Assembly: GCA_022578605.1 (NCBI GenBank)
Contig: MU394182.1
Coordinates: 1-21,744, forward strand
Direction of reading: 5' to 3'
DNA length: 21,744 bases
Source: Camillea tinctor
Lineage: Eukaryota > Ascomycota > Sordariomycetes > Xylariales > Xylariaceae
The position numbers and the translations under genes were made by a program. Of this stretch, positions 1-21,083 are shown piece after piece. The notes below the pieces were generated by a model, which saw nothing but the letters and a program-made list of their open reading frames with translations, had not been told where the DNA came from and did not search any database. Each line of letters starts with the position of its first letter. Positions within the stretch are counted from its first letter, which is position 1.

Positions 1-94
1 CTAACCCTAACCCTAACCCTAACCCTAACCCTAACCCTAACCCTAACCCTAACCCTAACCCTAACCCTAACCCTAACCCTAACCCTAACCCTAA
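1..94. repeat. Telomere repeat array (CCCTAA)n
   Basis: About 15.7 uninterrupted copies of CCCTAA, the C-rich strand of the TTAGGG telomere used by most filamentous fungi. It begins at base 1 and passes directly into AT-rich DNA, so the left edge is a physical chromosome end and the window reads toward the centromere. No telomere-linked helicase gene follows within the window. Confidence 0.98.
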
Positions 95-1316
95 AACTTT
101 AATATTTGTTGTAATTTATATATTAAATAAAGCATATTAAAAATGTTTTATAAAGCATATAAATAACTTATTATAAAAAAAAACTAAATTTGCAAAACTT
201 TACTAATAAATTAAATTTATTATAAAAAAAAATTTTAAAATGCAAAAAGCTAAAAAGTTTTTAATTATAATTTTAATTATTAATTTTTAAAAAGTTAATA
301 TTTATTTGCTTAATTTTATTATTATAAATAATATAAAAATTATTAATAATAAACCTTTACTTATTATTATTATTTTAATTATTAACATAATGCATTAAAA
401 AGTAACAATTATTTTTATTTTTTTTTTAATTATATTTTTTTTTGTTGTTTTTTTTTTATTATTTTCTTTTTAATCGTTTTCTTTTTAATCGTTTTTTTCT
501 TAATCGTTTTCTTTTTTATTATCTTCCTTTTTATTATTTTTTTCCTTATTATTATTTAAATAGTTCTTATTATCTTTCTTTTTCTTTTTAAGCTTATTAT
601 TAAAATAAAAAAATTAAAAAAAAATGTTAAAAAAAGCAGTAATACCGTTTTTTATAATATTTTTAACTTAAATATTAAATTTTTTTAACTTATTAAGCTA
701 ATTTTTTAAAGTAATGCGTTAATAATAATATAAAGCATTAATAAAATAAAGGTTATAATAAAGTTTAACTATAATAATTATAATAAGTTTAAAATAAATA
801 TTAATAAAAACTTAACTTAAAAAATTTTGCTTTTTAAAAAAATAAAAAGTATATAAAGCTTAAACTTTTATTATAACAATAATTAATTTAGTTTTTTAAA
901 TAAAATTATATAAAGCTATTTTATAAATAAAAAAGCTTTAAATAGCAATTAATTTATAATAAAATTAAGCAATATTTAAACTATTAAATTTAAATATATT
1001 ATTTTATTAAATAACTTAAATTTTTTAAGCATTTTATACTAATTAAATAAAACTTTTAACTTAACAACTATATTTACGCGCAATATTAAAATTTTTATTT
1101 AACATAATTTTAATTATTATTTTATAATTATTAAATATTATTATTTTATAATAATATATAAAGTATTTTATAGTAAAAAATATAATATTTTAAAGTAATT
1201 TGCACATAAAAAACTTATAATAATATTAATTAAAATAAGCATATTTTAAATTTTAAACAAAGTAAAATATAATAGGTTTTTTTTTATTAAAAACATTTTT
1301 AAAGCTAAAAAAAAAA

Positions 1317-1379
1317 CTTTTAAAGCTTAATAAAAAACTTTTAAAGCTTAATAAAAAATTTTTAAAACTTAACAAAAAA
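1317..1379. repeat. 21-bp tandem repeat, three units
   Basis: Three consecutive units of about 21 bp (CTTTTAAAGCTTAATAAAAAA type) at 1317-1337, 1338-1358 and 1359-1379. The third is slightly diverged by A/T changes. It lies inside the AT-rich block. Confidence 0.7.
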
Positions 1380-1405
1380 ACTATTATATTAAAAACGCAA
1401 TTTGC

Positions 1406-1485
1406 TTTAATTAAATTAAATATAATAATAACTTAATAAGCAATATTTATTTATTTTAATTAAATTAAATATAATAATAACTTAA
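1406..1485. repeat. 31-bp direct repeat pair
   Basis: A 31-bp sequence (TTTAATTAAATTAAATATAA and onward) at 1406-1436 recurs identically at 1455-1485, a 49-bp period. It is low-complexity AT DNA, but the identity over 31 bases is clear. Confidence 0.6.
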
Positions 1486-1700
1486 AAAACAATATATATT
1501 TGCTTTAACCGAATTTAAATAAATAAAATATAAAAGTAAAAAAAAAAAAAATGTATAAAAATAAACAGTAAAAAAAAAATTAAAAAAAAAAAGTTAAAAC
1601 AAAAATTAAAATTAAAATTTTAAATTAATTACGTAACTATATAAAAACTATTTTAATTAAAGCAAATATAAACTTTAAATTTATAACTAATAATTTAATA

Positions 1701-2255
1701 TTAAGTTTAAAGTTTAATTTACTTTAATTAAAGTAGTTTTTATATAAAAAATATGCTTTTATAACTAAAAAGTATACTTTTACTTTTATATTTTTTAAAT
1801 AATATAAAAAATAACTAACTTTTATGCTGTTTTTTTATATAATGGTATAAAAGCTGGTTAAGCTTTATAACTCCTAAATACTATTAAGTTTAAAGTTTAA
1901 TTCGCTTTAATCAAAGTAGTTTTTATACAAAAAATATGCCTTTACACCAAAAAATGTGCCTTTATAACTAAAAAGTGTGCTTTTACTTTCATATTTTTTA
2001 AATAGTATAAAAGCTAACTAACCTTCATGCTATTTTTTTATATAATGGTATAAAGGCTAATTAAGCTTTATAACTCTTAAATACTATTACAAAAAATGTG
2101 CCTTTACACTAAAAAATATGCCTTTATAACTAGAAAGTGTGCCTTTACTTCCATATTTTTCAAATGGTATAGAGGCTAACTAGCTTCTATGCTGTTTTTT
2201 TATATAATGGTATAGAGGCTGGTTAGGCTTTATAACTCCCAAATACTGTTAAGGC
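1701..2255. repeat. Subtelomeric tandem repeat, about 180-205 bp units
   Basis: Three head-to-tail units start at about 1701, 1884 and 2088. The third lacks roughly the first 40 bp. Shared landmarks are the TATATAATGGTATA segment, CTTTATAACTC and repeated AAAAAATRTGCCTTTA sub-units of about 20 bp. Unit 2 is longer because it has an extra sub-unit. Differences are mostly C/T and G/A transitions. The unit nearest the telomere is the most AT-rich and the one nearest the ankyrin gene the least. Confidence 0.8.
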
Positions 2256-2399: not shown

Positions 2400-4217
2400 T
2401 TATAAATCATCGTGACGTGAAAGGTACGGCTCGAAGAGACGAGCAACATCGTTGTGACCGTTTGCTTTTGCATGACTATACGGTGCCGAATAACCACCAT
2501 TCTCGTTGTAATTGCCTTGGTTAAGCAACATCTTGACTATGTTTTCATGTCCCTCCCAGGCAGCACACATCAAAGCACTCCACATGTGGTCGGTCTTTTC
2601 TTCATTTGATTCGGCATCTTGACTCAGGAATAATTCTACCATCTCCCCCAAGCCACGCTCTGCGGCGAGACAGAGGACACCGTCGTTGCTGAGATAGTTG
2701 TAAGCATCTGCACCATGTCCAATCAGCAGCCTCGCCATCTCGTTGTCGGTGTTCTCCAACGCGATCATCAAAGGCGTACAATGGCACGCGTTGAGCTTGG
2801 CGTCTTTGGCTAGAAGCAATCGGGCCACGGTTTTATGGCTGCCCTCCACCGCCCAGCAAATGGGAAACCTCCCGTCTTCGTCTGTTTCTCCGGAGTTGGG
2901 ATCAGCACCCTTCTCTAACAGAAGAGATACGATTTCCTCCTGGCCAATCTCAGATGCATAAGATAGAGGTGTTCGTCCATCCTCATCCTTAGAATTTGGA
3001 TTGGCACCTTTTTTCATGAGAAGTTGAACTACTCCAATATGTCCGTTCTCTGAGGCCCAGGATAGAGGTGTTCGTCCCCACTCGTCTTCAAGGTCTGGAT
3101 TTACGTTCTTTTCCATTAGGAGTCTAGCCACGACACTGTGTCCTCCCTCTGCAGCCCACGATAGAGGTGATCGACCTCTCTCGTCAATTGCATCCGCGTT
3201 GGCGTCTCTCTCTAGTAATGAACGCACGGTTCCTAGCAGGCCCTGCTCTGAGGCAAATGATAGTGCTGTCCTCCCGTCCTCATCCCGCATGTCGACATCA
3301 GCTCCTCGCTGTAGGAGCAAATCGACTTGCTCTTCACAGTTGTGGTATGCAGCCTCCATCAAGGGTGTACGGCCCTTATCAAGTCTGACGTTCAGACTGG
3401 TCCCCGACCTTTTCAACAATGTCTGCAACTTAACCAAGGCCCCCTTGGTCATTGTAGCTGAATGGATCGCTGGGTCTTGTACACACTCCGAGGTGGAATG
3501 TTCCATCAGCAAGTTGACAATAGAATCGTGACCTTGTTCAATGGCCCATGCCAATGGCGTTCTACCATCTTTGTCCACCAAACAAACTTCAGCATTGCTA
3601 CCCAGCAATAATCTCACCGTATCCTCGTCCCCTCTCTTGGCTGCTAATGACAACGGTGTTTGACCACAATACCAATCCTTTACATCTGGATCGGCTCCTG
3701 CATTCAGCAAAAGCTCCACTAAATGACTATGGCCCCCTCTAGCAGCAGATAACAACGGCCTTTCGCCAGATGCATCATGTGTTTCAACGCACGCGTTTGC
3801 ATGTAGCAAATATCTTGTTACTGTTTTATGGCCGTGGGCAACAGCCTGTAGTAAGGGTGTCCGACCACAGTTGGACTCCCCAGCATTGACATTAGCGCCC
3901 CGCCTAATGAGAAGCTGCACAGCTTCATCGTGTCCCCCCTCGGCGGCCCAGAATAAGAGAGACCGTCCATATTCAAAATCGCAAGAATTCACATCCTCTC
4001 CTTTGTCCAACTCCTCTTGTATCTTTAAAGTCTCTCCATTTGCTGCGGCAATGAAAAGAGTTGCTTCCCAAGGGCATAACTGGGCCATACTTCCGTTGGA
4101 GGTTCTCTTCGTGGATGGAAATGCTACCGAAAGATTCAAGAAACTGTATGTTGCGAAAAATGAAATGAGAGGGAAAAAAACCCCCCCCCCCAAAAAAACA
4201 CGTTGAGTGGATGCCAT
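2400..4217 (-). CDS. Ankyrin-repeat protein
   Basis: A single-exon 605-residue frame built almost entirely of about 16 ankyrin repeats of 33-35 residues from about residue 45 to the end. Each carries the G-R-T-P-L-x-x-A-A-x-x-G-H consensus with LLL and G-A-(D/N) (for example GRTPLSWASENGH). One repeat near residues 245-280 is degenerate. Ankyrin arrays bind other proteins. No other domain is seen, so the partner is unknown. The start is uncertain. The ATG at 4217 adds 43 residues with a hydrophobic, signal-like stretch encoded across an 11-G tract. The internal ATG at 4086-4088 (residue 44) begins right before the repeats. Both have the same AAGTATGGC context. The frame is intact and of normal GC although it abuts the RIP block. 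Repeats of about 100 bp are probably too short to trigger RIP. Confidence 0.85.
   Translation of the reverse strand: MASTQRVFLGGGVFFPLISFFATYSFLNLSVAFPSTKRTSNGSMAQLCPWEATLFIAAANGETLKIQEELDKGEDVNSCDFEYGRSLLFWAAEGGHDEAVQLLIRRGANVNAGESNCGRTPLLQAVAHGHKTVTRYLLHANACVETHDASGERPLLSAARGGHSHLVELLLNAGADPDVKDWYCGQTPLSLAAKRGDEDTVRLLLGSNAEVCLVDKDGRTPLAWAIEQGHDSIVNLLMEHSTSECVQDPAIHSATMTKGALVKLQTLLKRSGTSLNVRLDKGRTPLMEAAYHNCEEQVDLLLQRGADVDMRDEDGRTALSFASEQGLLGTVRSLLERDANADAIDERGRSPLSWAAEGGHSVVARLLMEKNVNPDLEDEWGRTPLSWASENGHIGVVQLLMKKGANPNSKDEDGRTPLSYASEIGQEEIVSLLLEKGADPNSGETDEDGRFPICWAVEGSHKTVARLLLAKDAKLNACHCTPLMIALENTDNEMARLLIGHGADAYNYLSNDGVLCLAAERGLGEMVELFLSQDAESNEEKTDHMWSALMCAAWEGHENIVKMLLNQGNYNENGGYSAPYSHAKANGHNDVARLFEPYLSRHDDL
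4181..4191 (-). repeat. G11 homopolymer in the ankyrin gene N-terminus
   Basis: Eleven consecutive C on the plus strand (G on the coding strand), flanked on each side by seven A (T on the coding strand). It encodes the three glycines at residues 10-12 of the longest ankyrin frame. A one-base change in length would disconnect the ATG at 4217 from the repeats but leave the ATG at 4088 usable. Confidence 0.8.
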
Positions 4218-5942: not shown

Positions 5943-8056
5943 ATGCCTTTTCTACCAGCAAAACCTACCAGCCTAACCAATGGCGACTTTGTCTTCTTAG
6001 CACTGGTCTGGTGAGAAACCTGCATCTCCAATTATGTTGTCTCCAGAAAGACATTATCTAAACGGCAACCGAGAAACAGGGCCTCTTATATTATGCTTTC
6101 AGTGCTATCTACTGCCTTTACTTCCATCCACTTAGTCGGTTTCCTGGACCAACCACCAGCGCTATATCAAGGATCCCCCTTGCTCTACGTCAATACCGAG
6201 GTCGGCCTCATGTTGAAATAGCCGAGCTACATCACAAGTACTGCAATATTGTTCGCATTGCCCCTGATCAGCTCTCGTTTCAAAATCTTGATGCATGGAA
6301 AGACATTTATGGTCATCGCAAGGGTGGTGCTGGAGAGAATAGCAAGGATCCACGGCGGTGAGTTTATTTTAGAATACATTTCCACGTATTATTGGTCTCG
6401 GGTGCGGAAGTGGCCTATTTCGGGCTTGATTCTCAGGTAGATTGAGTCGGTTGAAACTGAATATTTAGAGTTGACAATTACTGACTGCCATTCACAGTCA
6501 GGTCTTAAGCAAGAACAATCTCTTAGGTGCTGATCGTGAGAATCATTCTTTGTTCCGCCGTTCACTAGCCCATGGCTTCTCGGCCCAAGCCATAGCTGAA
6601 CAGCAGCCGCTCATCAACAAATACATAGACCTTCTTATAAAGCGGCTGCATGAGAATGCCGGAAACCCCGTTAACATGGTCTCGTGGTATAACTGGACTA
6701 CCCTCGACATTATCGGCGACTTGTCCGTGGGGGAGCCCTTTGGTTGCCTCAAAAAACCCCAATCTCATTTCTGGGTCACTACCATCTTTGGCTCGCTCAA
6801 GTATTTGTCTTATGTTAGACATATTGAATATTTCCCTCTCTTCAAGTTCCTATCACCATTCCTAATACCTAAAGAATTACAACGGCAGCAGAACGCTCGT
6901 ATGGACCTCACAATCAAAGCTGTACAAAAATGCCAAGCTAAGTGGGATCCGACCAGACTATATCGACGCTCTGATGAGTCGCAAGCCAGGAACTAGACCA
7001 ATCACACAACTAGATATCATCGATCATGCTGCAGTTCTCGTTATAGCTGGTTCCCAAACTACTGCTACGACACTCTCTGGTACAACATATCTATTGTGCA
7101 AGCACCCACATGTCCTCTCTAAACTACAAGCCGAGGTGCAATCCAATTTCTCATCTGAAGATGAGATAGATTTCAACAGTGTTAGTCGATTGCCGTGTAC
7201 GATGGCCGTTCTTAACGAAAGCTTGCGCATATACCCACCTGTAGCGGTCTCTTCTACGCATGTTACTCCACCCGAGGGAGGTGTGATTTGTAGCGAGCCA
7301 ATACCCGGTAATGTAAATATCCCTGCCCGAAGCATATTCTCTTCTTAAATCATTCCACATGATATAGACTCACTTCAGAGACAGACCTATATAGATATAT
7401 TCCATTGGCCAACATATCGCAACTCTCAATACTTTGTTGAGCCCAATTCATTCATCCCCGAACGCTTCTTAGGCATCGACCCACGCCTTGCTAATGACAA
7501 GCTAGATCTGTTACTGTGACAAGGGGTAATAGCTTGGAACAATAGAGTCATATTCAACTAATAATTCTCTTATAGTCTTAAGGAGTCTTAAGGTTCTAAG
7601 TTCTCTTAGGTTCCATGTCGAGAATAACGCTCCTATTTATACACATATATTCTGGCTTAAGGCATCTATTTATGTTGGTTTATCCATTCATAAGCATTAC
7701 CCACATAGGTAATCCGAAACATGATCCCATTTTAGTGACATCCAACATATCTTGGCAGTGTCCACGTATGACAGTTACAGCCATTTTCAGTCGGTCCGAG
7801 GAACTGCATTGGCAAGAAGTAAGTTAATCACCAACAACTTTCCTAAATAAAGTAGACATTATCATCCAGATTACTAATGACCCGACGCATATCTAGTCTT
7901 GCATACCTTGAGTCGCGATTAGTCCTCGCTCGCATCGTGTACAACTTTGATATGGAGCTCTCTCGACAAAGCTAAGGGTGGATGGAGAACCAGAAGATAT
8001 ACAGCTTGTAGGACAAGCCCCCGCTGTATGTTACACTAACAACTCGCAAGAGTTAA
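5943..8056 (+). pseudogene. Cytochrome P450 monooxygenase pseudogene, split by a solo LTR
   Basis: Remains of a fungal microsomal P450 (heme-thiolate monooxygenase). In order: a hydrophobic N-terminus and an HPLSRFPGP hinge (about 6130-6155); RIAPDQLSF and WKDIYGHR (about 6255-6320); I-helix AGSQTTAT near 7045; K-helix E-S-L-R near 7217-7228; PERF near 7458; heme loop FSVGPRNCIG at 7784-7813 with the Cys codon at 7805-7807. Introns fit at 6358-6497, 7313-7384 and 7819-7896 (CTAAT branch site near 7874). Lesions: a frameshift near 6930-6960; an LTR at 7515-7773 just before the heme loop; in-frame TAA at 7973-7975 and TAG at 8009-8011, the latter where a Trp is expected; a first intron (about 6011-6079) whose phase does not fit. 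The natural stop is probably TAA 8054-8056. It resembles fungal CYP65-like enzymes of secondary metabolism; the substrate is unknown. Confidence 0.9.
7515..7773 (-). mobile_element. Solo LTR, family A copy 1 (259 bp)
   Basis: Begins TGTGACAAGGGG and ends CACGTATGACA, flanked by an exact 5-bp duplication GTTAC (7510-7514 and 7774-7778). Read on the minus strand it starts TGTCATACGTGG and has a TATAAATAGGAG box. It matches the copy at 9443-9697 in opposite orientation almost end to end. No internal retrotransposon sequence is attached, so it is a solo LTR. It sits inside the P450 coding sequence. Confidence 0.9.
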
Positions 8057-8688: not shown

Positions 8689-8766
8689 TTATTCGTGTTA
8701 ATTGTACTCTCACGAACGAGATCATATGTGTTATAATAGGTGTTGGGCAGCATATTATGCTGAATT

Positions 8767-8829
8767 TGTCACGGACCATATATGAGCTAATAGTCAAAAA
8801 GCTATTAGCATTTGCTTTTTAGCTTTACA
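8767..8829 (-). mobile_element. 63-bp mini solo LTR-like element, family B
   Basis: Starts TGTCACGGACC and ends CTTTACA, with an exact 5-bp duplication GAATT (8762-8766 and 8830-8834). Its reverse complement aligns over the full length with the 62-bp element at 11225-11286: shared TGT start, central hairpin, and TATATRGTCCGTRACA end. The hairpin arms here are CTAATAG/CTATTAG. Strand is assigned relative to the 11225 copy. Confidence 0.75.
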
Positions 8830-8940
8830 GAATTGGCAGAAGCTTCTTAGAATGGTCGAGTTGCCATTGTGTCCAAATTCTATATTATATATATTAGTTC
8901 CCTAGCTAGGACTAAATACCATGTTATTTAAGCACCAATA

Positions 8941-9000
8941 TGTGGAGCAAAATACATATGCCAATTGCTTTTAGCAATTAGCTCTTATATAGCCGTCACA
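8941..9000 (+). mobile_element. 60-bp mini solo LTR-like element, family B
   Basis: Starts TGTGGAGC and ends ATAGCCGTCACA, flanked by CAATA (8936-8940) and CAATG (9001-9005), a 4-of-5 duplication whose mismatch is a transition. The central hairpin is AATTGC...GCAATT. It aligns with the copies at 8767 and 11225. Confidence 0.65.
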
Positions 9001-9442
9001 CAATGCACATATAATCTTTCATGATGCTGGCGGAAAGTATGGATACGTTCGTTGTGCGTGTTGGAATATAAGGTTACTATCTTACTAAACGCTATTTTCC
9101 TATTACCATACGTATATATATAGTGGTCTTACGACCTCCAGACTCTCTTTGAACTAATACAATTCATCATTTCCCCTCACCCATCGTTTCACTCCAATAC
9201 ATTCGAAGAGGCACCCAAGCCCAGTGGCATGCTGCGTTCACCTTTCCATGGTCTCTACCAATCTCTCCCTGTCAAACAGCATCGACAGTTCGCAGGTCTC
9301 CTGGCAAGAATTTATTGGACGACCGGCATCTTCCGTTCATCAATGCTGTCAATGTGAATTTCGCCTGAATTTAGTGCTTCGCTCGTCTATTAGCTATTGA
9401 TTAGGGCTATTTTATTATGCTCTCGAGTTATTAAGGGAATTA
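9001..9442. other. Unassigned interval before LTR A2
   Basis: Contains a TATATATATAG run near 9114-9122 and a CT-rich, promoter-like stretch (about 9125-9200). No reading frame longer than chance follows. It may be the 5' remnant of a lost gene. Confidence 0.3.
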
Positions 9443-9697
9443 TTGTCATACGTGGACACTGCCAAGACTGGTTGGTAAATATGATACCCTGTTTCGGACC
9501 ACCTGTATTGGTCATGCTTAGGGATAACCAACTTGCATAAGGAATAGATGCCTCAGGCCAGAATGTATGTGTATAAATAGGAGCATTATTCTCGACTTGG
9601 GACCCAGGAGAACTTAGAACCTTAAGACTCCTTGAGACCATAAGAGAATTATTAGTTGAATATGACTCTTTGTTCCAAGCTATGACCCCTTGTCACA
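9443..9697 (+). mobile_element. Solo LTR, family A copy 2 (255 bp)
   Basis: Starts TGTCATACGTGG and ends CCCCTTGTCACA, with an exact 5-bp duplication ATTAT (9438-9442 and 9698-9702). TATAAATAGGAG lies near 9572. It is a near full-length inverted match of 7515-7773, so the two copies form an inverted pair about 1.7 kb apart. Confidence 0.9.
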
Positions 9698-9702
9698 ATT
9701 AT

Positions 9703-11224
9703 AAGCGAAACCGGATCATACAGGCCCTTCATCGTAATCTGGCTAGAGACCTTTCACTCGGGTGTGTTGCTAATGTGAATCTATAGGTGTTTGTGTTACT
9801 GGTAGGGGATTGTGGGCATAAAAGGGTTTCTGACCGCCAAAATCTCGTCTTTGGTCCCAATGGCGACAATGATACATACTATCATATTCTAGCACTCGAA
9901 AAGGGAGGAAGTCGGCTTTCATCACTAGAACTTTTCCCAACAGATAGGGCTTCAATTGAGGCTCCGTTCGTGCATACAGACATACACATTTGTTCGCCGT
10001 TACCGCACCTACTCCACAAATGGACTGGGTAGAATATTTGAGGTTAAACAACTTCCCTTGGCCCATTGAATCCCATATACCCTACCAGTCCAATTCGCCA
10101 GTTAATGCAATACTACACTTATTAAGGGGCTATTAATACCTCAAAGGCACTAAGAATTTAACTCTTAATAGATGATTTACCTCCATCCGGCGCTGTATTT
10201 GATGGTGTTGCAATTATTCTGAAAAGCTGTGTTAGGAGATGGCAGCCTTCTTTTGATGTTAACTTTCCTCCCCTATAGAAATACGATGCAGCTATAGACA
10301 AATGTACAGCGCTCAGCAACGAAGACTCAAAATAGTGAACCGGATCGCCCTATTATCATAAGATTCTGATTTATCAGACAACGAAGTGATAGTACACATG
10401 GAGGAAGAAGCTGACTTTAAGTAACCATCTGATTTATATCGATTCAAGTGCTGATGATTCCCCGATCTGGATCTACGGCAGCAGTTGGACGCGCTCTGGC
10501 ACTAGTCAGAGTTCCGCTGGACATTGATATTCGAGCCGTTAATCCATTGTATTTGGGCCACCACGTAGTGTTTTGTTTAGTAATCTTGATAGGTATTGTG
10601 TGGAATCGTTATCGAAGCGTGTGTCTAACTCATAGGATCAGAGTTTTGAGCGATATAGCCAAACATCTCATTTTTATGCCTCGTAACAAACGATTTATGG
10701 CCATTTACATAACAGCTATTGACAGATGCTGCATAGCATACCGTCATCAGCGGCAAGCATTGAGACAGCTCTGATTTCGAATATCAACGGGACCACCTTG
10801 TAGATCAACAAATAACCCTCAATCATTTGCTTGCAGTAGGGCTCGTCCTCCTTGACTTTAGCCGTACCGTGCTTTCTTAGTCAAATTACCTTGGAGGGCT
10901 GGGAACTAGAAGTTGCCTATGTGTCTACTACGTAATATAGATAACTCAGCAGGCTTTAGGTTTATTAGGTAGTTCTCCTTTCCGGCTCCAGCATCCATTT
11001 TTTCCTTAACTCATCACATACACCATACAATAGCTTGATAGCATACGGCAATATACCCCACTGTGCCCTTAGGCCCTAAAAAATTATTAGTTATATATTA
11101 CTTTTATACAGTAACAGAGACGATTCAGTAGTAACCTTACGACTCCGTAGTGGGGTCAAGGATGAGGCCTTGACGGCTGATGTGGCTAAAGCAGGTGATT
11201 ACCAACCTAAGTGTGTATTAGGTA
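9703..11224. other. Unassigned interval, no supportable gene
   Basis: About 1.5 kb of normal-GC DNA with open frames of at most 108 codons (10448-10774) and no motif I recognise. It could hold decayed coding sequence, because composition is gene-like, but I cannot name a family. Confidence 0.35.
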
Positions 11225-11286
11225 TGTGTGATAAAAGATGATCATTAATTGCCCTTCCGCAATTAGCGTTTATATAGTCCGTAACA
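11225..11286 (+). mobile_element. 62-bp mini solo LTR-like element, family B
   Basis: Starts TGTGTGATAAAAG and ends TATATAGTCCGTAACA, flanked by an exact 5-bp duplication AGGTA (11220-11224 and 11287-11291). The central hairpin is AATTGC-CCTTCC-GCAATT. It is the reference copy for the family found also at 8767-8829 and 8941-9000. Confidence 0.8.
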
Positions 11287-11664
11287 AGGTATGAACTTGT
11301 GAATCACGACCCTATGTTGCCTCAAGGCAGGTTTGGCAGTGTTTAGGATTATGAGATATGAAGGTAAAGTGGCATAGGATTGTGCATCGGACGCTTCCTA
11401 CTGGGGAGGATATGGTGAGGGAATAGCTAACTACGTGGCTTGAGTCACATCGAAATTATCAACATGGTAATCACTTATAATTTGAACATACACTGAAGTT
11501 TAGATTCTATTAGATACGATAGTCACATATGTACACAATTACTAGGTACCCTGATAAAGCTACTCTAGGCTTTTAACTAGTCGAACCGCCAAAAAAGAGG
11601 TGAGTATGGTAGCTAAACTGTTCGCAAGCCGGCTCTAGCAACTAGAGGTCGCAACAACTAGTGC
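11287..11664. other. Unassigned interval
   Basis: No open frame, repeat or RNA gene that I can support. Confidence 0.35.
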
Positions 11665-14221: not shown

Positions 14222-16269
14222 ATGCGACTGATCTGCGAATTCGACAACGGAACTACTGCCGATATACAGACGGCCATTGCTCTGAGTCCTTACGATGTAC
14301 GCGGGCTTATCAACGAGGCATTTTTCCATTGTTTACGTGTCTTGCCTGATTCTTACGGCTTTCTCCAGGCCGAGGGTTCGGTTCGACATGTTCTTGAGAC
14401 TTTCCAGGCCGATCAAGATCGTTACATTGAAAATTATATAACAGCACGTTCATTCTCATTAGGTGACCAGTCCCAACTGACACCTCGTGCCGAGTTGGTT
14501 CACGCGTCCTTGCGGGCGGGCGGCCCGCTTGCCCTCATCGGTGTCTTTCACGCAACATTCAATGCCAGTCGTAATGCACAAAACTTGGAAACGCTGAACT
14601 TCTTCCTAAACGAATCTACAGAAGCGTCAAAACAAAATCTTTATAAGAGAGCTGCGATGTTCCCTTGTAATCCATCCATATGCACTTGGTTCAGTCGATT
14701 AATCGGCCGACTTAGCCCTAGCTCTCGGGCCCTTGCCTACCTTCTTTCTTGCCTGGGGACCTCTGAAGTGTCCAGACGTCTCTTTTCTCGCGCTCTGAAG
14801 CCATCTGAGACATGGGGCACTGATGGGGAGATCACGGCGGTTGATCCGCAGCCTCATAAGTTTTTGGATCATGTCTCATCAACCACTGCCATGCGCGAGC
14901 TGGAGACAATTGGGTTCCTCAGGATTACCCCAACTCTTGTACGAGCCGATCAGCGTCTTGTCCAATTCTTACAACAAACTTGTGATCTAAGTTGTTGGAG
15001 GATACAGGCAGTTGAAATGGTCTGCCACGCCTTTCCAAAGCATCGATCTATTGACCCTGAGTGGTAGGTAGCTTTACGGATTCATTTGAGTACCCATGGG
15101 CTAACACATATCATAGCTATGAGGCCCAATGCGAATTGATCCTACCATGTCTTCGACATGTCCTTTCCTATTTTGCAGACCCGAAGATCGTGTTGCATTT
15201 TTCAAATATGCCCATTCTATCCGTAGTTGTAGAAGCATGCCTGTCAGCATCCGATTTTGGTGACCAAGTCCAGAAGGATCTGGCGCTTTCCACTGCTGAA
15301 AAGCTGTTGGAAGCATCTAAGAAGAAGTACTTCAACGAACACGATCACGTCATCTTACAAGCCAGAGTCAGCCTGAAAAAGGCTATGGCGATACGATCCT
15401 ACACTCATATCCCTTTCCTGGGAGCTAGGTGTATTTCATCCAACCAGAGAGATCCCCGATCGAATGCCTTATCAGCTGAGATAGCCATATTTAAAGCTGA
15501 GAAAGAAATGAGTTCTAATCGCTTTGATCTAGCTCTTCGGAAGCTTGATGCGTTCATCACTACTACGGGAAGTAACTTATCAACTCTCGAAAAGATTAAG
15601 ACCATGGAGGTTGCTACAGTATACGGCAACATGTTAAGATGCATAGGCCACTTTTCAGAGGCGTACCAGCTTCTCGAGCCATTACCTCGGACACACTACG
15701 TAACGTTATATCTCAGCTCAGTGTTGTGTGAACTGGGAGACTGTGATCGGGCTATTACAATGTTGGAGGGACAATTACAACTTAGGACGAATAGTCCTTG
15801 CTTGCAAGAGGAAACTAGGATTGCATTAGCTCATGTCTATTGCTTCAAATCTATGCAGGCAGTGAAAAATGGTCAGCAAGACAAGAAATCGCTGAAAGTG
15901 GCAACTGAAATGTATCTCGATCTGCGTCAACTTATACGAGCACACACGCAGAAGGCCAACTTAGATCGCTTTTCAATTTCCGCAGGAATAGCAGTTATCA
16001 GTTGTATTAAAGGCGAGCTGGAGAATTCTTGGATTGCGTGGAATGAAGCCTTTCTTGCGCTGAAGTCTAGTGGGCTCTCCTTTGGATATACAGATGCGCT
16101 TGTTCTATATATCATGAGCGAGATAGAATTCGAGCGTCATACAACAAAAGACAGCCAGTTACACAGGGACAAAGCTCGAGCGGTTTTCATGGAATATAAC
16201 CGTCAGCATCGTTTCCTTGGTCTAGGCTCGCTCTGTCCAGATATCATTGGAATTCTTTTCATGACATGA
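14222..16269 (+). CDS. Hypothetical protein, possible NLR-type winged-helix plus TPR-like repeats
   Basis: Two exons, 14222-15063 and 15117-16269, give about 664 residues. The 53-bp intron has donor GTAGGT, branch GCTAAC and acceptor CATAG and joins the frames exactly. Residues about 164-251 (LSPSSRALAYLLSCLG ... ELETIGFLRI ... DQRLVQFL) resemble the winged-helix region after NB-ARC domains in fungal NLRs, where a hydrophobic L-S-P-x-A-x-x-L-L-x-x-L-S helix and an H/Q-R-L-V-Q-x-x motif recur. The C-terminal 380 residues are helical with TPR-like pairs (for example LSSVLCELGDCDRAITMLEGQL). No P-loop or Walker B is seen, so it is either a truncated NLR relative or another helical protein. The frame is clean. 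A decayed LTR begins about 80 bp past the stop and the C-terminus may be atypical. Confidence 0.7.
15064..15116 (+). other. Intron of the 14222-16269 gene
   Basis: 53-bp intron with 5' GTAGGT, a GCTAAC branch site at about 15100-15105 and 3' ATCATAG. It splits a Cys codon (TG|C). Reading through it would stop at TAG 15065-15067. Confidence 0.85.
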
Positions 16270-16822: not shown

Positions 16823-17059
16823 TAAGCGGTTGTCCTATCCGTATTCTTATGGAATCTTCGTCTGTAAGTGTTATTTCAATGCCAATACTCAGCTTCGACG
16901 CTCTATCCTTGTACGGCATCTGATTTGCTACTTGTACGCGACGACGACCTAAGCTTCTTGCCGGTAATGACGGAAGAACCATAAGTGGGTGGCGGGCGAG
17001 TCTTTGCCTTTTAAGAGGCTCTCTTGTGACTTTCTTCTAATAAAATATGTAAAGAACTT

Positions 17060-17634
17060 CGAATTATGCGCAGTTGTTTATCCTTGCTTTAATTTATAAT
17101 GTTTTAAACATGTAAAACTTATAATAATATAAAGGTTTTTAAAGTTAAAAACTTTTAACATTTATTATATGATGGTTGCATAATAAGGACAGGAAGTAAC
17201 TATGTACCCCACACATAAATAGGTTGCACTTTCCTGCATAACCTTAGTTAAATAGTTCCTTTTTTAAACATAAATAACACAACCGTTTTTCACCACTTGT
17301 TTTTACTTTATTTTTATTTTTTTTAAGTACGTACATTTATTAACATTATATAAATAATAATTTATTTTTTTATTTTTTTATTATTAATAATAATATTAAG
17401 TATAGCGTTATTAATTAATTAAACATTTTTAATTTAATAATTTTTTAATAATTTTAATATATAATATTAATAAATATTAATTTTATTATAACAGTTATTA
17501 TTTTATTAAAAAACTAACTTTAAATACGGCTTATATTTAATATATATAAAAGTTTACGCTTTTTTATAGCTTTAATAAACAAGCATTTATTTTTATTTTT
17601 CATAACCTTTATAATATACATTAGTTATACCTAG
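17060..17634. other. AT-rich mutated stretch inside the nuclease pseudogene
   Basis: Very AT-rich, with stops in all frames. On the minus strand, weak traces of the expected coding sequence remain (an F-Y-I-x-stop...F-K pattern near 17545-17575). This fits a RIP-mutated nuclease core rather than non-coding spacer. Confidence 0.5.
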
Positions 17635-17900
17635 TGATGTAGGGACTAGGGGAACTAGGGACCACAATTGTATATAGTTCGCAATGCATTACAGGTTTGC
17701 GATAGTTTCTCCCTTTTACAACATGGCATGTCGGCGTTACTATACAGTTTAGATCAATACATTCCTTTCGCTTTGAATCTTTTATCTCTATTTCAAATAA
17801 ATAGTATGAAGGTTAGGTGTCGTAGACTAAGGACTTCAGTCCCTAGTCCCCCACAGCCTCATACAACTGTTGGTAGGGGGTCTCCTCTATCTCCAGTTCA
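17635..17900 (+). mobile_element. Probable solo LTR, family F (266 bp)
   Basis: Starts TGATGTAGGGACTAGGGG and ends CTCCAGTTCA, with TG...CA ends and a 4-bp duplication CTAG (17631-17634 and 17901-17904). It is normal-GC while both flanks are AT-rich, so it looks like an insertion made after the flanks were mutated. Near-inverted TAGGGACTAGGG and CCCTAGTCCCC motifs lie at about 17640-17660 and 17840-17852. The boundaries are less secure than for the other elements because the duplication is only 4 bp and CTAG is palindromic. Confidence 0.55.
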
Positions 17901-18081
17901 CTAGCTTAATCCCCCATGTAATAAATTTATTGCTACTTACATACTTTTAACTATTACCTTTAAATTCGATAACGAAAAATAAATATATCAAGCTTTAATA
18001 TTAATTGTTAGCTACCATTTCTGCCCCCATGAAAATTAGTTGGGACTATTGTTTAAAAAAGCGTGGTGGCGGTTATATCCG

Positions 18082-19690: not shown

Positions 19691-20070
19691 AGCAAATCGC
19701 GAATTGCGAGCTTAAAATCTACAAAAAAATAATTCAGTCTATAAAAAACGTCAGCCTTTGAGCGGCTTAACCAATCAATGTTTATCAGCCGAGACAGAAA
19801 AACAATGGTCTGCTTTAAAGGTTTACTTAAGTGTATATTATACTATGAACTTATACTTACTTAACTAGGTACCTAGGTATATAATACATTAACTTAGTAT
19901 AATAAAGCTACACATTAAATGCTTGCCTTTCTCATTTTTTTCATATTATTCTCATGTATTAAAACTATTAAAAAAGCTTTAGCTTTTTTTAAGTTAAAGT
20001 TAAGTATATGTAATAAATAAGGAAAAATACCGGTTTAAATAGTTTAACAGTGCTTTTTAAATAATTTAAC

Positions 20071-20149
20071 GGTATGGCGTACATTTGCTACACATTAAGC
20101 TTAAAAATATTTAGTTAACTTTAATACACGGCTATAAGTACATACGCCC
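20071..20149 (-). repeat. 79-bp inverted repeat, left arm (mutated)
   Basis: Reverse complement matches 21207-21285 over 79 bp. Essentially every difference is C-to-T or G-to-A, with this copy the AT-rich one (GGTATGGCGTACAT... versus the partner ending in ...ATGTACGCCACACC). The pair may be terminal inverted repeats of a DNA transposon relic about 1.2 kb long. Confidence 0.75.
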
Positions 20150-20176
20150 TTTAAATATAAATATCTTTATTATCTT

Positions 20177-20207
20177 GCGGTTGCAGCCGCCATTGCATTT
20201 GCAATGG
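20177..20207. repeat. Two adjacent palindromes
   Basis: GCGG-TTGCAG-CCGC at 20177-20190, followed by CCATTGCA-TT-TGCAATGG at 20190-20207 (perfect 8-bp arms). They form a GC-richer island in otherwise AT-rich DNA. Confidence 0.6.
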
Positions 20208-20302
20208 GTTGAAATAAATTGAAATTTTTAAATTTATTTACATTTAAAAAAAAAGCTTTTAAAATGCAAATGCATTTAAATTAAAATCGCAAATATATTG
20301 CA

Positions 20303-20354
20303 GTTATAAAAGTGAATTTAATTGGTTTGTAACATTTACATTTACTTTTATAAC
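20303..20354. repeat. Inverted repeat, 11-bp arms
   Basis: GTTATAAAAGT (20303-20313) and ACTTTTATAAC (20344-20354) are perfect inverted copies with a 30-bp loop, inside the AT-rich block. Confidence 0.55.
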
Positions 20355-20390
20355 CGTAAAACAATAAAGGTACTTTCATTTAAAAGGCTG

Positions 20391-20510
20391 TAAAGCAATA
20401 GCCCTTATATAAAAATTTAATTGGTTTATTTTATAGTTAATAAAACTAGTATTTTTATAACTTACATCATTTTTTATACCATTATTATCCACATTATTAT
20501 TTATATTAAT
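20391..20510 (+). repeat. 120-bp direct repeat, copy 1 (more mutated)
   Basis: Matches 21084-21203 over about 120 bp (TAAAGCAATAGCCC ... TACCATTATTATCCACATTA). Differences are transitions, with this copy carrying T or A where the other has C or G. Confidence 0.8.
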
Positions 20511-21083
20511 TTATATAATAAAAGCTATACGTTATTTTAATTGTTAATTTTTTATTACGGTATATATATTTATAATAACTTAATAAAATGAAATTTAACT
20601 TTAATCCACACACATGCCGTGCTAATTTAATACTATAACATTTACTATACTATTAAAAAATATTAAAAAATATTAATTAACATAACACATTTACCTATTA
20701 TTTATAAGTACTTTATAAATATATAAAAATATTAAAAATTATTAATTTGTTATTAAGTTAATTAAAAGATTTTACGAATTAAATATTGCTAAAAATATTA
20801 AAGCATTATATAATATCGAAAAACTTAAATATTAATGCTGTTTTTAATAAATAAAAAGTTTAAAATTAATTAAAGTTAAAAAGCTAATAATAAATATAAA
20901 AAATTAAAAATATAATAAATAAAATTTAAAGTTTTAAAAGTTATAAAATAAAATACAATAAATAAAAGCAAATATGCCGTTTATTACAATAAAAAAAACA
21001 ACTTTACTATAAAATTTTTATACCATTATTAATTATTATGCTTAATGCTTTAAAAAAACACGCTTAAAAAATTTAGCCGTATA

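What the first reader, a model, noticed from the sequence alone, without database searches (positions are those of the whole stretch)
8767..11286. Family of 60-63 bp mini LTR-like elements with a covarying hairpin
Three elements (8767-8829, 8941-9000, 11225-11286) share TGT...ACA ends, a TATATAG-type subterminal block, 5-bp target duplications (two exact, one 4/5) and a central hairpin. The arms are AATTGC/GCAATT in two copies and CTAATAG/CTATTAG in the third: the sequence changed but pairing is kept. At about 60 bp this is shorter than typical LTRs and may be a minimal, non-autonomous retroelement unit not yet described.
Basis: partly seen in the sequence, partly recalled or inferred. Interest (0 to 1): 0.8.

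Follow-up and report, generated by a model that had tools for sequence, protein, structure and literature searches.

The report
Solo ends of a tiny retrotransposon
The three 60-63 base repeats are most likely leftover single ends (solo LTRs) of a very small retrotransposon that cannot move on its own, scattered through the genome of a fungus that matches Camillea tinctor; it is a miniature version of a known type, unusual mainly because nearly all copies seen lack a middle part.

Summary
All three units have TGT...ACA ends, 5-bp target duplications (two exact, one 4/5), a TATA-like block and a central palindrome whose two forms keep pairing. They belong to a large family in a genome that matches Camillea tinctor: 245 core-pattern hits against 33 for a reversed control, and 159 distinct places listed. 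Of 142 units with both ends called, 120 carry a 4/5 or 5/5 duplication.

The decisive find is one complete element (contig C14, L041:3516-3896). Two identical 63-bp units flank 255 bp and share an outer GGAGA duplication. A primer-binding site complementary to the 5' half of tRNA-iMet abuts the first unit and a G-rich tract abuts the second. The units are therefore best read as solo LTRs of a 381-bp TRIM-type, Copia-like LTR retrotransposon.

LTRs this short are known (52 bp in a plant TRIM, PMC4717578). Less usual are the solo excess (one complete element among 159 listed places; grass SMARTs show the reverse), a tRNA-like stretch in the internal region, and subfamilies ending TG...TA and TG...GA. 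Palindrome covariation is supported, but an RNA role is not shown. No intact Copia partner was found.

The parts
8767..8829 (+). Solo LTR, subfamily A (63 bp, TGTCACGG...AGCTTTACA)
   Evidence: 98% identical to the LTRs of the complete C14 element and to 11 solo copies that are identical to each other; profile hit E 5.5e-18
8762..8766 (.). Target duplication GAATT, left copy
8830..8834 (.). Target duplication GAATT, right copy (5/5)
8778..8783 (+). TATA-like block
   Evidence: direct reading; near-invariant in alignment A1
8786..8794 (+). Palindrome left arm (GCTAATAG..)
   Evidence: fold of L001; pair counts
8801..8809 (+). Palindrome right arm (..CTATTAGC)
   Evidence: fold of L001; pair counts
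8941..9000 (-). Solo LTR, subfamily B (60 bp; sense strand is minus)
   Evidence: 40 matches listed, itself included; profile hit E 6.6e-14
8936..8940 (.). Target duplication CAATA, left copy
9001..9005 (.). Target duplication CAATG, right copy (4/5)
8986..8991 (-). TATA-like block
   Evidence: direct reading
8974..8982 (-). Palindrome arm, 5' on sense strand
8960..8968 (-). Palindrome arm, 3' on sense strand
11225..11286 (-). Solo LTR, diverged copy (62 bp; sense strand is minus)
   Evidence: profile hit E 3.8e-10; only one other partial direct match
11220..11224 (.). Target duplication AGGTA, left copy
11287..11291 (.). Target duplication AGGTA, right copy (5/5)
11271..11276 (-). TATA-like block
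   Evidence: direct reading
11259..11265 (-). Palindrome arm, 5' on sense strand
   Evidence: fold of L039 (this copy's own z-score only -0.48)
11246..11252 (-). Palindrome arm, 3' on sense strand
   Evidence: fold of L039

Best explanation
The units are solo LTRs, 59-67 bp long, of a family of non-autonomous miniature LTR retrotransposons (TRIM type). One complete 381-bp copy was found, on contig C14.

Inferred cycle: (1) RNA polymerase II transcribes the element from the TATA block in the LTR. (2) The 5' half of initiator tRNA-Met anneals at the PBS that abuts the 5' LTR and primes minus-strand DNA. (3) The G-rich tract abutting the 3' LTR primes plus-strand DNA. (4) Reverse transcriptase and integrase are supplied in trans, most likely by a Copia (Pseudoviridae, hemivirus-like) element. 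(5) Integrase inserts the DNA with a 5-bp duplication. (6) Recombination between the two LTRs removes the 255-bp middle and leaves a solo LTR with its target duplication.

Shown here: the anatomy, the duplications, the PBS match and the unpaired state of the listed copies. Inferred: transcription, trans-mobilisation, the identity of the partner, and LTR-LTR recombination as the route to the solo state.
For: Complete element: two identical 63-bp units in direct orientation, 255 bp between them, outer duplication shared, no duplication at the inner edges. Eleven solo copies are identical to these LTRs, each with its own 5/5 duplication (one of the 11 is TTTTT in a T-run). PBS: 21 of 22 nt match the complement of four tRNA-Met(CAT) genes; alignment over the whole 38-nt 5' half, with gaps of 5 and 1 nt, scores 46 against a maximum of 24.5 in 2000 shuffles. 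G-rich tract GGGGGGTG abuts the 3' LTR. Duplications: 120 of 142 at 4/5 or 5/5. Bases at two of five mirrored flank positions are symmetric about the 88 exact duplications: T at -3 in 44 with A opposite in 49, A at -5 in 45 with T opposite in 41 (not tested against base composition); a symmetric target is what I recall for LTR integrases. TATATA is near-invariant, a feature reported for plant Pseudoviridae LTRs (PMC3601003, passages). Most fungal Helenus TRIMs are reported to pair with tRNA anticodon loops, tRNA-iMet being the commonest, and to depend on Copia (PMC10886601, results and discussion read).
Against: Only one complete element is known, and its internal region has no second match, so the link from most subfamilies to an LTR element rests on shared sequence. 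Two subfamilies include ends TG...TA and TG...GA rather than TG...CA. All 13 Copia RVT_2 matches carry 9-15 stop codons, so no living partner was seen. LTRs this short should recombine rarely: in grass SMARTs (85-bp LTRs) complete copies outnumber solos 3.4-50 to 1 (PMC3281118, passages).
Confidence: 0.85

Rival explanations
1. LTR-only transposition: the 60-bp unit itself is made as a one-LTR linear DNA (aberrant reverse transcription or a processed one-LTR product) and integrated directly, so most copies never had an internal region.
For: One complete element among 159 listed places. In the youngest class 11 solos are identical to each other and to the single complete copy, so the middle would have to be lost faster than 63 bp gather one change. 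No LTR-internal-LTR-internal-LTR arrays were seen in the loci in hand.
Against: No intermediate was observed. Solo formation by LTR recombination is an established route, and a burst seen only as solo or fragment copies is reported in Podospora (PMC10787394, passages). Selection against or loss of complete copies gives the same picture.
Confidence: 0.13
2. Solo LTRs of a kilobase-sized autonomous Copia with 60-bp LTRs whose complete copies were hypermutated by RIP, so that only the short, RIP-proof solos remain recognisable.
For: 13 of 13 RVT_2 matches are full of stops. Two of two Copia stretches checked have 10-15% GC and a (CpA+TpG)/(ApC+GpT) ratio of 0.41-0.50, whereas the 381-bp element has 1.21. 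RIP typically acts on repeats above about 400 bp (PMC10787394, passage).
Against: The other ratio, TpA/ApT, does not separate them (1.27-1.49 against 1.25). The 400-bp limit is not strict: the same passage says repeats of 150 bp have been hit in Neurospora. A RIP-tolerant search for the LTR-PBS junction found only the C14 element and two AT-rich matches with one mismatch each. No unit lies as a pair around a Copia fragment in L044 or L178, although both stretches are incomplete.
Confidence: 0.25
3. Miniature inverted-repeat DNA transposon (MITE-like) with TGT...ACA ends and a 5-bp duplication.
For: Short, non-coding, palindromic, with target duplications; one subgroup folds TGTGGC with GCCACA across its full length (L162).
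Against: A complete two-LTR copy with PBS and PPT exists. Most subfamilies share little more than TGT/ACA at their ends. The 5-bp duplication fits an LTR integrase.
Confidence: 0.03

Closest known systems
TRIM (terminal-repeat retrotransposon in miniature), incl. SMART/FRetro129 and CcaRetroS9
   Same: Short LTRs, short non-coding internal region, PBS and PPT, 5-bp duplications; SMART has 85-bp LTRs in 292 bp, CcaRetroS9 52-bp LTRs in 233 bp (PMC3281118, PMC4717578, passages).
   Different: Here solos dominate (one complete element among 159 listed places), whereas SMART complete:solo is 3.4-50:1; the host is an ascomycete (ascomycete TRIMs are reported elsewhere, e.g. nine in Cochliobolus heterostrophus, PMC4112212, passages); the LTR carries a covarying palindrome beside the TATA block; the internal region holds a tRNA-like stretch.
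Helenus (fungal TRIMp3)
   Same: Fungal miniature LTR element, 5-bp duplications, PBS complementary to the tRNA-iMet anticodon loop, tRNA-derived sequence present (PMC10886601).
   Different: In Helenus the tRNA-derived sequence is in the LTR. Here the LTR has neither box and the tRNA-like stretch is internal, where a Pol III start would miss the 5' LTR (inference). The fungal Helenus reported there are from Pucciniales and Agaricomycetes.
Copia/Ty5-type hemivirus
   Same: Half-tRNA-iMet priming site, TATATA in the LTR, 5-bp duplication.
   Different: No gag-pol; 381 bp only; no intact Copia reverse transcriptase seen in this assembly.
Solo-LTR bursts of crapaud in Podospora
   Same: RIP-competent ascomycete with a large solo excess and little RIP in solos (PMC10787394, passages: 150 full copies in a set of 1305 terminal repeats from seven species).
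   Different: The variable U3 half alone of a crapaud LTR is given as under 200 bp; here whole LTRs are about 62 bp and the solo excess is greater.

Membership tests
TRIM | Identical direct terminal repeats with shared outer target duplication | tested here: met
   L041:3516-3896, one element
TRIM | One complete element plus at least one solo LTR with different target duplications (criterion in PMC4717578, passage) | tested here: met
   One complete element and 11 identical solos with their own duplications
TRIM | Under 1500 bp, no retrotransposon proteins | tested here: met
   381 bp with a 255-bp internal region, too short for a reverse transcriptase or integrase (by length; no domain search run on it)
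TRIM | PBS next to 5' LTR | tested here: met
   21/22 to tRNA-iMet complement, 0 nt from the LTR
TRIM | PPT next to 3' LTR | tested here: met
   GGGGGGTG abuts the 3' LTR by reading; function not tested
TRIM | Autonomous partner | tested here: inconclusive
   13 Copia RVT_2 matches, all with stops; two open chromovirus pol frames without detected LTRs
Helenus | tRNA-derived sequence in the LTR | tested here: not met
   No A or B box in the 63-bp LTR; both are in the internal region
Helenus | Box A and box B of Pol III present in the element | tested here: met
   Indices 48 and 124 of the internal region; 0 of 20000 mononucleotide shuffles have both in order. Rfam tRNA score is below threshold, E 1.4
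Copia-mobilised element | Half-tRNA-iMet primer site | tested here: met
   Alignment to the whole 38-nt 5' half
Copia-mobilised element | Mobilised by Copia enzymes | not testable with these tools
   Needs a transposition assay or a living partner
MITE | Terminal inverted repeats and no LTR pair | tested here: not met
   Direct LTR pair in C14

The most novel reading that the evidence does not exclude
The 60-bp LTR is itself the transposing unit: a one-LTR DNA, shaped by the palindrome beside its TATA block, is integrated directly, and the 381-bp two-LTR element is a rare by-product. That would be the smallest integrase-mobilised eukaryotic element known to me, and well below the usual RIP length.
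Probability: 0.13. Interest if true: 0.8.

Novelty: new variant of a known kind. Interest (0 to 1): 0.42.

Why it matters
It gives a compact case of an LTR element reduced to about 381 bp with 59-67 bp LTRs in a fungus whose Copia fragments look hypermutated, which suggests that being below the usual RIP length lets a family spread. The near-absence of complete copies despite very short LTRs sits badly with the view that solo formation goes with long LTRs, and makes the question of how solos arise testable by comparing strains. It is also a caution for annotation: units this short are easily missed.

Tried and rejected
MITE: rejected on the C14 two-LTR copy. SINE/retro-pseudogene: rejected, as most units have fixed TGT...A ends and 5-bp duplications.

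RNA-level hairpin: not supported over a DNA palindrome. G-U cells on the sense strand (61) equal A-C cells (62), the latter being G-U on the antisense strand; leaving out the innermost pair gives 55 to 23. RNAalifold gave no structure. The commonest copy's minimum-energy RNA fold does not use the palindrome (L002).

tRNA-gene targeting: not seen; 1 of 40 loci with up to 1.5-kb flanks has tRNA genes (a few of these loci overlap). A full tRNA gene in the element: ARAGORN found none, Rfam below threshold. More copies of the internal region: none at E 0.001. More LTR-PBS junctions: one exact hit (C14) and four one-mismatch hits; 0 of those 4 has a unit before it (by reading). RIP-mutated junctions: none convincing. 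The two open chromovirus frames as partner: no mini-LTR and no direct repeat of 30 bp in the stretches held; the outer flanks could not be fetched, so this is open.

Literature: searches (open-licence PMC only) listed no description of this family; subscription papers and Repbase were not searched.

Units dropped before counts: 12 of 154 without both ends called (listed), L031 without a core match. Of units in L041-L060 eight were added by hand; most others there are the same places as L001-L040. Four further units (in L056, L058, L059 and L041:3021-3095) were left out of the 154; read they have 5/5, 4/5, 5/5 and 5/5 duplications and are not in the counts. In one search, 111 of the 113 distinct units were aligned (L116 and L172 left out as miscalled or degenerate). 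At least one of the 159 places, L081, looks like a chance pattern match without the palindrome.

Full report
What was checked. The three units are at the stated coordinates, with TGT...ACA ends and flanks GAATT/GAATT, CAATA/CAATG and AGGTA/AGGTA. They are relatives in opposite orientations: 8767-8829 reads TGTCACGG...TTTACA on +, the other two read TGTGACGG... and TGTTACGG... on -. A profile of the family, these copies included, finds these three and no other copy in the window.

Host. The window lies in a 44.7-Mb assembly of 154 contigs. A window protein (15061-16266) matches a Camillea tinctor protein at 100% over 95% of the query; this species is in Xylariales. AT-rich blocks (12-14% GC at 1-2000) and Copia fragments with 10-15% GC and low (CpA+TpG)/(ApC+GpT) ratios (two of two stretches tested) point to a RIP-competent ascomycete.

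Genome-wide family. The core pattern has 245 hits with up to two mismatches, against 33 for the reversed control (only 100 rows shown). Rows plus 11225 collapse to 159 distinct places, at least one of them (L081) looking like a chance match. Subfamilies by 3' end: A (AGCTTTACA, with a GCTTGACA branch), B (TCTCCACA), C (TGTCGCG...GCCATA or GCCACA, mostly 59-61 bp) and D (TGTTGCAG...GTRAGA, 66-67 bp). C and D thus include copies with TG...TA and TG...GA ends that still carry 5-bp duplications. That such non-TGCA ends occur in other LTR families is recalled and comes from no call here.

Target duplications. Of 154 units, 142 had both ends called: 88 with 5/5, 32 with 4/5, 22 with 3/5 or fewer. 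Some of the 22 are miscalled: L039, L138 and L139 have exact duplications with the ends used. Two of the 22 are the LTRs of the complete element, which should fail. Re-paired flanks give 0.65% and 3.0%. Bases around the 88 exact sites are symmetric at two of five flank positions.

The complete element. On C14 two identical 63-bp A units lie 255 bp apart in the same orientation. On the sense strand: GGAGA, LTR, GTTATGAGCCCGGC..., internal region...GGGGGGTG, LTR, GGAGA. The PBS matches the complement of four tRNA-Met(CAT) genes at 21 of 22 positions and aligns along the whole 38-nt 5' half with gaps of 5 and 1 nt (score 46, null maximum 24.5 in 2000). Priming at the anticodon loop is reported for Copia, Ty5 and the majority of fungal Helenus elements (PMC10886601, results and discussion read). 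The internal region also has a perfect A box and B box in sense order (0 of 20000 shuffles have both), but Rfam's tRNA model scores below its threshold (16.7 against 29 bits, E 1.4) and ARAGORN finds no gene. It is tRNA-like and has no second match in the genome. A Pol III start upstream of that A box would miss the 5' LTR, so it is more likely a passenger than the promoter (inference).

Solo excess. Among the 159 places there are 11 same-strand pairs within 12 kb, one being the complete element. In each of the other 10 at least one member has its own 4/5 or 5/5 duplication. Complete to unpaired is thus about 1:157 in this list, which is partial. The 11 solos identical to the complete copy's LTRs all have exact duplications. 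In grass SMARTs the ratio runs the other way (PMC3281118, passages). Podospora crapaud also has many solos, and one burst there holds only solo or fragment copies (PMC10787394, passages). So either loss of the middle is fast here, complete copies are removed or hypermutated, or bare LTRs insert directly. The data do not choose; ordinary recombination is taken as most likely because it needs no new step.

Palindrome. Ten pairs were tested on 111 distinct units: 91.5% of cells paired against 85.5% shuffled; 76 double changes against 36; slid registers pair 19-42%. Pair 31-43 is U-A 58, A-U 50, other 3; pair 33-41 is C-G 75, U-A 16, U-G 16, other 4. Against: pairs with a double change and further pair types are no more than in shuffles (424 and 434 of 500 reach them), the changes may reflect few ancestral events, RNAalifold finds nothing, and wobble counts show no strand preference over all ten pairs. 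Folds of seven single units are 1.9 to 3.8 SD below shuffles for six and not for the 11225 copy; in one of the six (L002, the commonest sequence) the best fold is a different one. A palindromic DNA site is as likely as an RNA hairpin.

Partner. RVT_2 gives 13 matches, all with 9-15 stops. rve gives two matches, both within open chromovirus pol frames with RT, RNase H, integrase and chromodomain; no mini-LTR or direct repeat of 30 bp was found in the stretches held, but their outer flanks were not available. The partner is unknown.

Placement. Units sit mostly in ordinary-GC sequence (mean 42%, range 25-49%, over 39 loci) and are not near tRNA genes (1 of 40 loci).

Verdict. A TRIM-type element by the structural criteria tested, with the autonomous partner unresolved; not a Helenus by its defining feature; working like a half-tRNA-primed Copia derivative. 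It appears to be a new family, and a variant in its solo excess, its internal tRNA-like stretch and its non-standard ends.

Noticed in passing
L179:1310-4903 and L180:2505-6146 (contigs C14 and C26): Two open chromovirus pol frames of about 1200 aa (RT, RNase H, integrase, chromodomain) in normal-GC sequence with no direct repeat of 30 bp or more in the stretches held; possibly low-copy intact elements or domesticated genes.
   Followed up: partly
window 1-2000, 17001-18000, 20001-21000: AT-rich blocks (12-26% GC in 1-kb steps), of the RIP-mutated kind.
   Followed up: partly
window 2400-4217 (-): 605-aa open frame with many ankyrin repeats.
   Followed up: partly
window 6550-7348 (+): Cytochrome P450 pieces in two frames, an intron-bearing or broken gene.
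   Followed up: partly
window 14222-16269 (+): Two overlapping frames of 281 and 402 aa; the second matches a Camillea tinctor hypothetical protein at 100%; no Pfam family at E 0.001.
   Followed up: partly
L049:2192-3758 (contig C8): Three units within 1.6 kb. Over all listed places, 29 pairs lie within 12 kb, more than even spacing would give by my rough estimate (no call).
   Followed up: no
L011:1262-1356 and 2451-2547: Two tRNA-Ile(AAT) genes about 1.1 kb apart beside a subfamily B unit.
   Followed up: no
L162, L167, L168, L171: A TGTGGC...CCACA subgroup with near-perfect 6-bp inverted ends, perhaps nearer the ancestral LTR than the TG...TA copies.
   Followed up: no
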